20,028 nt of DNA from a virus: the IMG/VR virus record IMGVR_UViG_3300047564_005702, positions 1-20,028 of that record; one strand, written 5' to 3'. The notes beneath the pieces are model-generated. The model saw only the letters and a program-made list of their open reading frames with translations. It did no database searches and was not told the DNA's origin. Positions 8,364-10,352 of this stretch are shown in pieces. The position numbers and the translations under genes were made by a program. The first letter of the stretch is position 1; each line of letters opens with the position of its first letter.

Positions 8364-9386
8364 ATGGCAGTCAACGCTTTTGCAAATGGTTTAGATTTGG
8401 GAATTAATACGCCAACAATAAATCTCACAAATACAAACCTTTCAACAAACGCCACTAATAATACTTCAGTATCTTTTAATCAAGATACAAATGTTGCTCC
8501 AGGAGTTCCAAATCCTTCTCAGGCACAAAATCAAAGTCAAACTGTAACTACTGGTCGCAATGTCCCACAACCAAAAAAAGTTTCTGCTGATACTATAAAG
8601 GCAAGAATACTTCAACCTGCTTTAACGTCACATTTTGAATGTTATTTTGGACCTCCTCCAGAACGATGTTCAAATTTTATTAAACAGGGTGTTACTGATA
8701 ATGATATAACAAGTTTTTTAATATTATCTTGTTCTGAAGCATCTCTTCCTGGATCTAGTTTAACTACACATGAATTGAACAACGATATTACTGGAGTAAC
8801 TCAAAGACATGCATATCGTCGTTTATATGATGATATGGCTGATTTTACATTTTATGTTAATAATTCTTATACTCCTATTAGATACTTTGAAACTTGGATA
8901 AGATTTATTGCTGGAGAACAGGAAGCAAAAGAAATTTCTACGGATTTATATTATCCATATAGGGTTAAATATCCGGAAGAGTATAAGACCAGTGTTTATA
9001 TTACCAAATTTGAAAGAGACACTCAGGCAAAAGGTGCTAGAAGTCCTCAAAAAATTGTTTACACATTTCATAATGCATTTCCAGTTCAAATTCAATCAAT
9101 GCCACTTTCTTATGAGTCTTCTCAATTACTAAAGTGTACCGTGTCATTTTCTTATGATAGATATACATTAAGTAATACAGCCGTTTCTTCAATTTACACT
9201 AAAAACGAAGAACCAACTCAAACGCCTGCTGCTGGTGTTCCAAACCAAACTTATTCTACTTCTGGAATTCCAGAATTTCCTCCCATTGCCGCCGGCAATT
9301 TTAATGGAAATCCCATATTTGCAGATCCACCATTTGGTGTTGACAATATAAATCTAGGAAGTGGAGGAATTATTCCACCATTCTAA
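8364..9386 (+). CDS. 54: Baseplate tail-tube initiator gp54
   Basis: Homologue of T4 gp54 (320 aa; here 340), which sits on gp48 and starts assembly of tube protein gp19. The tube-like core spans about residues 70-275: RILQPALTSHFECYFGPP, LILSCSEASLPG, RHAYRRLYDDMADFTFYV, RYFETWIRFIAG, YYPYRVKYPEEY, YTFHNAFPVQIQSMPLSYE and LLKCTVSFSYDRY. The phrase 'NAFPVQIQSMPLSY' is typical of tube proteins. The first ~65 residues are an Asn/Thr/Gln-rich disordered leader and the last ~60 a Pro/Gly-rich tail. It starts at ATG 8364, divergent from gp4 with 37 bases between. No Shine-Dalgarno is obvious. Confidence 0.75.
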   Translation: MAVNAFANGLDLGINTPTINLTNTNLSTNATNNTSVSFNQDTNVAPGVPNPSQAQNQSQTVTTGRNVPQPKKVSADTIKARILQPALTSHFECYFGPPPERCSNFIKQGVTDNDITSFLILSCSEASLPGSSLTTHELNNDITGVTQRHAYRRLYDDMADFTFYVNNSYTPIRYFETWIRFIAGEQEAKEISTDLYYPYRVKYPEEYKTSVYITKFERDTQAKGARSPQKIVYTFHNAFPVQIQSMPLSYESSQLLKCTVSFSYDRYTLSNTAVSSIYTKNEEPTQTPAAGVPNQTYSTSGIPEFPPIAAGNFNGNPIFADPPFGVDNINLGSGGIIPPF

Positions 9387-9444: not shown

Positions 9445-10164
9445 ATGCCTTTACCAAGAATTGCAACTCCAACATATGAATTGGAATTACCTTCAACTGG
9501 ACAAACTATAAAGTATAGACCATTCTTAGTTAAAGAAGAAAAACTTTTAGTTATTGCATTAGAATCTGAAGATACTAAACAGATTACTAATACAATTAAA
9601 ACCGTTATTAAAAATTGCATCGAAACAAAAAATATTAAAGTTGAAGCACTTCCTACATTTGATATTGAATATCTTTTCCTTAATATTAGAGGGAAATCTG
9701 TAGGTGAAGAAATTGAAGTTAATGTAATTTGTCCTGATGATGGGGAATCTTTTGCTCCGGTTAAAATAAATGTTGATGATATTAAAGTTCAAAAAAATGA
9801 TGAGCATTCAAATAGGATCAAATTGGATTCAACTTTAATGATGGAAATGAAATATCCATCATTAGATCAATTCATTAAAAGTAATTTTGATCTGTCCAGC
9901 AATAATGCTATGGAACAATCATTTGAATTAATTGCTTCTTGTGTGGATAAAATTTATAATGAAGATGAAGTTTGGGCATCTGCTGATGTAACAAAGAAAG
10001 AACTTATGGAGTTTTTGGATCAAATGAATTCATCTCAGTTTAAACAAATTGAGAAGTTTTTTGAAACTATGCCAAAACTTTCTCATACAGTTAAAGTAAC
10101 AAACCCCAATACTCAAGTTGAAAGTGAAGTAGTGCTGGAAGGTCTATCAAGTTTTTTCGCATAG
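9445..10164 (+). CDS. 26: Baseplate hub assembly protein gp26 (T4_baseplate family)
   Basis: A 239-residue member of the T4_baseplate family (T4 gp26, 208 aa). It begins MPLPRIATPTYELELPSTGQ, followed by IKYRPFLVKEEKLLVIALES, the family hallmark, then FDIEYLFLNIRGKSVGEEI and a CPDDGE loop. In T4, gp26 acts in building the central hub. The ATG at 9445 is preferred over TTG 9430 because family members start at MPLP. The gene ends ...LSSFFA: the codons for FF form a T TTT TTC slippery heptamer (10152-10158), with the next ORF in the -1 frame. Its place just before the tape-measure gene matches the tail chaperones of other tailed phages. Confidence 0.8.
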   Translation: MPLPRIATPTYELELPSTGQTIKYRPFLVKEEKLLVIALESEDTKQITNTIKTVIKNCIETKNIKVEALPTFDIEYLFLNIRGKSVGEEIEVNVICPDDGESFAPVKINVDDIKVQKNDEHSNRIKLDSTLMMEMKYPSLDQFIKSNFDLSSNNAMEQSFELIASCVDKIYNEDEVWASADVTKKELMEFLDQMNSSQFKQIEKFFETMPKLSHTVKVTNPNTQVESEVVLEGLSSFFA

Positions 10165-10182
10165 GATTGGTCCATATGGACC
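10137..10182 (+). other. Candidate -1 programmed ribosomal frameshift signal (gp26 to gp51)
   Basis: Three elements in the correct order are present. First, an SD-like GGAAGG at 10137-10142. Second, nine bases on, the heptamer T TTT TTC (10152-10158) in phase with gp26 codons AGT TTT TTC. Third, ten bases on, a hairpin GGTCC-ATAT-GGACC (10169-10182). The -1 frame after the slip (CGC ATA GGA TTG...) is open and runs into the next ORF, giving a fusion of about 302 residues. The layout is as in dnaX and lambda G/T. Function is inferred. Confidence 0.5.
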
Positions 10183-10352
10183 TAGAAAATTATTTTAAAT
10201 TAAATTTTTCGTTGATGCAATATCATAAATATTCATTGACGGAAATTGAAAATATGATTCCTTGGGAAAGAGACGTTTATGTTGAACTTCTCAGGCAACA
10301 TATAGAAGAAGAAGAGTACAAACAACAAGCGCAACAAAGTAATGGCTGGTAA
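10176..10352 (+). CDS. 51: Short gp51-like hub assembly protein
   Basis: A 58-residue protein starting MDLENYFKLNFSLMQYHKY and ending in an acidic then Gln-rich tail. The motif IENMIPWERDVYVELL is what cyanophage annotations call gp51, the hub assembly catalyst, though it is far shorter than T4 gp51 (249 aa), so the name is by convention rather than clear homology. Short PWExxxY-type ORFs are also typical of tail-assembly chaperone C-terminal parts. ATG 10176 has AGGA nine bases upstream but lies within the hairpin 10169-10182; TTG 10167 is a less likely start. It may be made alone or as a -1 frameshift fusion with gp26. Its stop overlaps the next gene's start by 11 bases. Confidence 0.65.
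   Translation: MDLENYFKLNFSLMQYHKYSLTEIENMIPWERDVYVELLRQHIEEEEYKQQAQQSNGW

What the first reader, a model, noticed from the sequence alone, without database searches (positions are those of the whole stretch)
10137..10352. Candidate -1 frameshift fusing gp26 to the gp51-like ORF just before the tape measure
Seen: SD-like GGAAGG, nine bases, in-phase slippery T TTT TTC, ten bases, then a perfect GGTCC/GGACC hairpin. The next ORF is exactly in the -1 frame and open from the slip point, giving a product of about 302 residues. Known: many tailed phages (lambda G/GT and others) use a -1 frameshift to make two tail chaperones directly upstream of the tape-measure gene; T4 gp26/gp51 are usually treated as separate proteins. 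Inference: these cyanophage 'gp26' and 'gp51' may be a G/GT-type chaperone pair.
Basis: partly seen in the sequence, partly recalled or inferred. Interest (0 to 1): 0.78.

Follow-up and report, generated by a model that had tools for sequence, protein, structure and literature searches.

The report
Frameshifted tail chaperone gene, cyanophage
Two neighbouring genes of this ocean virus of bacteria, annotated in its relatives as separate baseplate proteins (gp26 and gp51), are almost certainly one gene read in two ways by a programmed ribosomal slip, making a short and a long tail-building chaperone; this arrangement was already proposed for T4-like phages in 2022.

Summary

Comparison makes it far more than chance. 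The heptamer is kept in phase in 143 of 148 distinct loci. The exceptions are one premature stop, one T4-type gene and three Ackermannviridae-like phages. Two synonymous slip positions show zero changes on the gp26 tree, against a median of 26 at other conserved codons. In 30 of 143 loci no start codon precedes the conserved gp51 block. The hairpin is backed by compensatory changes and by a recoding test, but it is lineage-restricted (absent in syn9-like phages).

The predicted gp26 fold matches the HK97 tail assembly chaperone (Z 8.0). T4 gp51 is a gp26 paralogue plus the gp51 domain, and T4-type gp26 genes have lost the heptamer, which is a natural control.

Best reading: gp26 is the short chaperone (TAC-N), and gp26-gp51 is the long form (TAC-NC) made by -1 frameshifting, as in lambda G/GT. 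The idea is published (Vladimirov, Gautam and Davidson 2022). This is a new member of a known kind, with extra evidence on the stimulatory hairpin.

The parts
9445..10164 (+). gp26-like ORF, short tail assembly chaperone (TAC-N, 239 aa)
   Evidence: PF12322 T4_baseplate E 4e-76; phrog_150 E 9e-81; predicted fold pLDDT 88 matches HK97 tail assembly chaperone 2ob9, Z 8.0
10137..10142 (+). SD-like GGAAGG upstream of the slip site (Glu-Gly codons), possible stimulator
   Evidence: at this Glu-Gly pair GAG 94 / GAA 36 in relatives versus GAG 1013 / GAA 2306 elsewhere in gp26; 22 of the 36 GAA cases are followed by GGG
10152..10158 (+). slippery heptamer T TTT TTC, site of the -1 slip
   Evidence: in phase in 143 of 148 distinct loci; zero third-position changes at NNT and at the first TTT, against median 26 (range 10-47) at 35 other conserved two-fold columns
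10162..10164 (+). gp26 stop codon, passed by the -1 slip
10169..10182 (+). downstream hairpin GGTCC-ATAT-GGACC, lineage-specific stimulator
   Evidence: 77 relatives: 85% of cells paired, 37 cells with changes on both sides versus 10.8 in shuffles; synonymous recoding weakens it from -8.7 to -4.1 kcal/mol
10158..10352 (+). -1 frame extension (gp51 / T-like domain, 64 aa: RIGLVHMDLENYF...), the C-terminal part of TAC-NC
   Evidence: phrog_634 E 1e-26 and C-terminal end of phrog_150, 242-279 of 282; homologous to the C-terminus of T4 gp51, E 5e-6; open in all 143 loci, 56-69 aa
10342..13092 (+). next ORF, probable tape-measure-like protein (916 aa), overlapping the end of gp51 by 11 bases
   Evidence: weak tape-measure profile hits, e.g. 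phrog_25241 E 6e-11; position as in P-SSM2 and other relatives
8364..9386 (+). upstream tail tube protein gene (context: tail tube - chaperone - tape measure)
   Evidence: PF23849 Phage_TTP_2 E 1e-16; phrog_45 tail tube E 4e-34

Best explanation
gp26 and gp51 of this cyanophage-type myovirus are one gene. Most ribosomes stop at TAG 10162 and make the 239-aa short tail assembly chaperone (TAC-N, like lambda gpG). A minority slip back one base on T TTT TTC, helped by the upstream SD-like purines and, in this lineage, by the downstream hairpin, and make a 302-aa long form (TAC-NC, like lambda gpGT) that carries the gp51/T-like domain. By analogy with lambda the two forms coat and load the tape measure protein for tail tube assembly. 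Shown computationally: the signal, its conservation, the absence of an independent start in many relatives, the chaperone-like fold of gp26, and the shared domain make-up with T4 gp51. Inferred: that slippage occurs in vivo, its efficiency, binding to the tape measure, and that gp51 is not also made alone from ATG/TTG in lineages that have such a codon.
For: Heptamer, phase and open -1 frame kept in 143 of 148 distinct loci; the others are three Ackermannviridae-like phages, one T4-type gp26 and one gene cut by a premature stop. Preceding codons differ (AGT, TCT, GAT, AAT, GCT, GGT) but always end in T; internal FF pairs never have the slippery form (0 of 158) and only 4 of 158 are TTT TTC. 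Fitch changes at the two synonymous slip positions 0 and 0, against median 26 elsewhere. In 30 of 143 loci no ATG/GTG/TTG lies before codon 12 of the extension, although homology starts at the slip site (RIALLH..L..YY..NF). In annotated Aeh1 and ACG-2014e no gp51 gene is called, yet the -1 frame carries it (phrog_634 E 1e-13 for Aeh1). Hairpin covariation and recoding test. gp26 fold matches HK97 TAC 2ob9 Z 8.0 and 3fgx Z 7.9, next rows 4.9 and below. T4 gp51 is a gp26 paralogue (hhalign E 4e-15, ending at the FF junction; E 1e-17 against T4 gp26) plus the T-like domain (E 5e-6). In T4-type phages, where 26 and 51 are separate genes, the heptamer is lost, e.g. GAG TTC TTT.
Against: No proteomic or reporter evidence is available. 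The SD-like motif overlaps a conserved Glu-Gly, so part of its conservation is protein-level. The hairpin is not universal: syn9-like phages lack it (recoding z 0.11). In the window itself TTG 10167 and ATG 10176 could start gp51 independently. The FF dipeptide is conserved even in several T4-type gp26s, so some constraint on these codons is protein-level. The T4-type gp51 model did not bring up the chaperone fold in the PDB second look.
Confidence: 0.95

Rival explanations
1. gp51 is a separate protein, translated from its own start (TTG 10167 or ATG 10176) by coupling or reinitiation after gp26 stops, with GGAAGG as its Shine-Dalgarno sequence; the fusion is not made.
For: Start codons exist in the window and in most relatives of its lineage; databases annotate gp51 as a separate gene.
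Against: 30 of 143 loci have no ATG/GTG/TTG before codon 12 of the extension although the conserved block starts at the slip site; annotated gp51 starts in syn9 and Syn1 cut off conserved residues. GGAAGG lies 24-33 bases from the possible starts, too far for a normal SD (sequence). Coupling would not need zero synonymous change in the heptamer.
Confidence: 0.03
2. Transcriptional slippage on the T run, not ribosomal slippage, makes mRNAs with one base changed and so the fusion.
For: All signals contain at least six T; pelagiphage and Melnitz sites have eight (AGT TTT TTT TAA).
Against: Most runs are only six T. The phase NNT TTT TTN is fixed in 143 of 143 loci, which slippage of RNA polymerase would not require. 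The downstream RNA hairpin and upstream SD-like purines fit ribosomal stimulation.
Confidence: 0.02

Closest known systems
Tail assembly chaperones of T4-like phages (Vladimirov, Gautam and Davidson, Virology 2022, 566:9-15)
   Same: As cited in PMC10885494 and PMC12846349: T4-like phages have TAC-N and TAC-NC; polyT slippery sites in TAC-N genes; some T4-like phages carry a separate short gene and a separate longer fusion gene. That these are 26 and 51 in T4, and that several T4-like groups keep the frameshift, I recall from the abstract (paper not held).
   Different: The window is an uncultured cyanophage-type genome. The covarying hairpin, the synonymous-site test, the start-codon test and the pelagiphage and alphaproteobacterial members are added here; whether the 2022 paper has any of these could not be checked.
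Lambda gpG / gpGT
   Same: Short and -1 frameshifted long chaperone encoded between the tail tube and tape measure genes.
   Different: Heptamer T TTT TTC instead of lambda's G GGA AAG (from memory); gp26 is longer (239 aa) and the extension shorter (64 aa); no pairwise sequence comparison with lambda was run.
Phage T4 gp26 and gp51
   Same: Homologous to gp26 (E 3e-27) and, as the fusion, to gp51 (E 4e-15 for the gp26 part, 5e-6 for the T-like part).
   Different: In T4 they are two genes on opposite strands, so no frameshift is possible, and the gp26 heptamer is lost.

Membership tests
Frameshifted tail assembly chaperone (G/GT, TAC-N/TAC-NC) genes | Gene lies between the tail tube gene and the tape measure gene | tested here: met
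   Tail tube 8364-9386 upstream; 916-aa ORF with weak tape-measure profile hits downstream; the downstream half is the weaker part
[quoted passage not shown]
   143 of 148 distinct loci; 0 synonymous changes
Frameshifted tail assembly chaperone (G/GT, TAC-N/TAC-NC) genes | Downstream ORF open from the slip point in the shifted frame in all members | tested here: met
   56-69 aa open in 143 of 143
Frameshifted tail assembly chaperone (G/GT, TAC-N/TAC-NC) genes | Short protein has a known tail-chaperone fold | tested here: met
   HK97 tail assembly chaperone 2ob9, Z 8.0, 84 residues, rmsd 4.0; best row, background rows near Z 2. Predicted model, first domain (residues 1-86) only; Z is at the edge of what the tool calls middling
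Frameshifted tail assembly chaperone (G/GT, TAC-N/TAC-NC) genes | Both short and long proteins made in infected cells at a set ratio | not testable with these tools
   Needs proteomics or a reporter assay
Frameshifted tail assembly chaperone (G/GT, TAC-N/TAC-NC) genes | Long form binds the tape measure protein and is needed for tail assembly | not testable with these tools
   Needs interaction assays or mutants
T4 gp26/gp51 family | Sequence homology of gp26 and of the gp51 domain | tested here: met
   PF12322, phrog_150 and phrog_634, hhalign
T4 gp26/gp51 family | T4 arrangement: separate complete short and long genes | tested here: not met
   In the window gp51 is only the C-terminal domain, in the -1 frame directly after gp26

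The most novel reading that the evidence does not exclude
Across marine T4-like phages 'gp51' is never a protein of its own, and the invariant polyT slip site is paired with lineage-specific RNA stimulators: a covarying hairpin in the window's lineage, a differently placed long hairpin in P-SSM2, none in syn9-like phages. T4 itself replaced frameshifting by gene duplication, after which the slip site decayed, so chaperone ratio control switched mechanism within one family of phages.
Probability: 0.6. Interest if true: 0.45.

Novelty: new member of a known kind. Interest (0 to 1): 0.35.

Why it matters
It corrects the annotation of a gene pair in very abundant marine phages: gp51, often called a baseplate hub assembly catalyst, is the frameshifted tail of gp26, and in some genomes is not annotated at all. 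It gives a simple account of why T4 needs both gp26 and gp51 (short and long chaperone). It also offers a clean case in which the same two-protein output is made by frameshifting in one branch and by gene duplication in another. The mechanism and the T4-like assignment were already proposed in 2022, so the gain is confirmation, breadth and detail.

Tried and rejected
A single-sequence fold of 10140-10230 gave z = -0.17; by itself it does not support the hairpin. Sequence searches of solved structures with gp26 and T4 gp51 profiles found nothing meaningful. NCBIfam gave nothing above cut-off. The T4-type gp51 model did not list the HK97 chaperone among PDB matches; its alignment had only six sequences, and absence of a match is not evidence of a different fold. 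BLASTP of the 916-aa ORF with the HTVC008M tape measure was not significant, so tape-measure identity stays tentative. An in-frame upstream start for gp51 inside gp26 was considered; the -1 frame usually has a stop 13-88 bases before the gp26 stop, and such a start would still leave the heptamer conservation unexplained. The Vladimirov 2022 paper could not be read.

Full report
Observation. The sequence at 10137-10352 is as described. GGAAGG (10137-10142) is followed after nine bases by T TTT TTC (10152-10158), read AGT TTT TTC GCA TAG in the gp26 frame. Ten bases later comes GGTCC-ATAT-GGACC (10169-10182). The gp51 ORF is in the -1 frame and open through the slip point, so a slip gives 238 + 64 = 302 residues, ending in RIGLVHMDLENYF...NGW. 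gp26 is PF12322/phrog_150 (E 4e-76, 9e-81). The gp51 part is phrog_634 (E 1e-26) and also matches the C-terminal end of the gp26 family profile phrog_150, positions 242-279 of 282.

Chance. The window is 34% GC and has 70 in-phase XXXYYYZ heptamers in 6117 codons, so a heptamer alone means little; TTTTTTC occurs once, and only three genes have any heptamer within ten codons of the stop. The 91-nt single-sequence fold is not unusual (z -0.17). The case rests on comparison.

Conservation of the slip site. Eighty IMG/VR loci at 70-85% protein identity all have the heptamer in phase and gp51 in the -1 frame. After more scans and annotated phages, 148 distinct junctions were compared: 133 TTTTTTC, 9 TTTTTTT and 1 TTTTTTG (143 in all); the five others are three Ackermannviridae-like phages with CTTTTC or CCTTTTT, one T4-type gp26 (SonariX), and L190, which has a premature stop inside gp26 so that its junction was not examined. 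Cultured phages with the site: P-SSM2, syn9, Syn1, SynMITS9220M01, DSL-LC02, ACG-2014e, HTVC008M, Melnitz, Cr30, pf16, Moby, R11Z, AF3 and Aeh1. The codon before TTT varies (AGT 69, TCT 51, GAT 11, AAT 7, GCT 3, GGT 2) but always ends in T; internal FF pairs in gp26 are TTC TTT in 102 of 158 cases, TTT TTC in 4, and never in the slippery form. On a gp26 tree the third positions of the preceding codon and of the first TTT have zero changes, and the last position five, against a median of 26 (range 10-47) at 35 conserved two-fold columns. Sequences are related, which the tree count allows for and the raw counts do not.

No independent start. In 30 of 143 loci there is no ATG, GTG or TTG before codon 12 of the extension, although homology begins right at the slip site (for example RIALLHTNLQAYYEGNFSLM). 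In syn9 and Syn1 the annotated gp51 starts cut off this conserved block. In Aeh1 and ACG-2014e no gp51 is annotated, but the -1 frame carries it (phrog_634 E 1e-13 for Aeh1).

Stimulators. The Glu-Gly codons upstream are biased towards purine runs: GAG 94 / GAA 36 against GAG 1013 / GAA 2306 elsewhere, and 22 of the 36 GAA cases are followed by GGG. In 77 relatives with CAYATG at the loop the five-pair stem is formed in 85% of cells, with 37 cells changed on both sides against 10.8 in shuffles, and sliding the partner lowers every measure except the number of further pair types, which only ties at +3. Recoding the extension synonymously weakens the fold from -8.7 to -4.1 kcal/mol (mean z -2.2) in this lineage; other phages outside the syn9 group show z -1.7, syn9-like ones z 0.1, and control stretches further down are no stronger than z -1.0. 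P-SSM2 has a stronger hairpin in another position (-15.6 kcal/mol). The hairpin is therefore real but lineage-specific, and the heptamer is the common element.

Relation to T4. In T4, genes 26 and 51 are adjacent on opposite strands. T4 gp51 residues 14-200 align with frameshift-type gp26 up to its terminal FF (E 4e-15) and residues 207-246 with the gp51 domain of cyanophages (E 5e-6). T4 gp26 and gp51 are paralogues (E 1e-17), and both fall in phrog_150. T4-type gp26 genes often keep the FF motif but have lost the heptamer (TTC TTT, TTC TTC and others), a natural control that points to selection for slippage where the T-like domain follows in the -1 frame.

Fold. AlphaFold2 models of gp26 (pLDDT 88) and of a T4-type gp51 (pLDDT 88) have the same order of elements, with three extra helices at the end of gp51. 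The gp26 model's best PDB matches are the HK97 tail assembly chaperone (2ob9, Z 8.0) and 3fgx (Z 7.9), then 5ir0 (Z 4.9) and 6vek (Z 4.1), the rest near Z 2. The match covers residues 1-86 or so, and Z 8 is at the edge of what the tool calls middling, but the named family is the expected one.

Prior work. [quoted passage not shown] PMC12846349 cites the same paper for polyT slippery sites in TAC-N genes of T4-like phages and reports GTTTTT in Vandenendeviridae. The 2022 paper is not held; from memory its abstract says frameshifting is kept in several T4-like groups and that T4 uses genes 26 and 51. The finding is therefore a new member of a known kind.

Verdict. What remains unproven is the slip in vivo, its rate, and binding to the tape measure.

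Noticed in passing
L090:2095-2140, L091:2200-2245, L094:2200-2245: Ackermannviridae-like phages (Vibrio K369, phiA8-29, Kuja) have a -1 frame extension after gp26 but CTTTTC or CCTTTTT instead of a tandem heptamer; perhaps a single-tRNA slip.
   Followed up: partly
L084:3178-3384 and L097:2199-2387: The gp51 domain is present in the -1 frame but unannotated in Aeromonas phage Aeh1 and Synechococcus phage ACG-2014e.
   Followed up: yes
L085:3218-3260: P-SSM2 has a long hairpin (-15.6 kcal/mol) downstream of the slip site, placed differently from the one in the window.
   Followed up: partly
window:10342-10352: The next ORF starts (ATG) inside the last codons of gp51, suggesting translational coupling.
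   Followed up: no
L082:4306-4929 (-): T4 gp26 weakly matches phrog_1140, the gp28 baseplate hub distal subunit family (E 9e-4); gp28 may be a further relative.
   Followed up: no
window:7877-8455 (-): The head closure protein (gp4-like) carries a TnsA-like endonuclease N-terminal domain (PF08722, E 1e-23).
   Followed up: no
L190:2034-2732: A stop codon (TAA CAA) interrupts gp26 in this otherwise 99% identical pelagiphage contig; sequencing error or a real mutation.
   Followed up: no
L203, L205: Two contigs have T TTT TTT but lack the Glu-Gly SD-like motif upstream.
   Followed up: no
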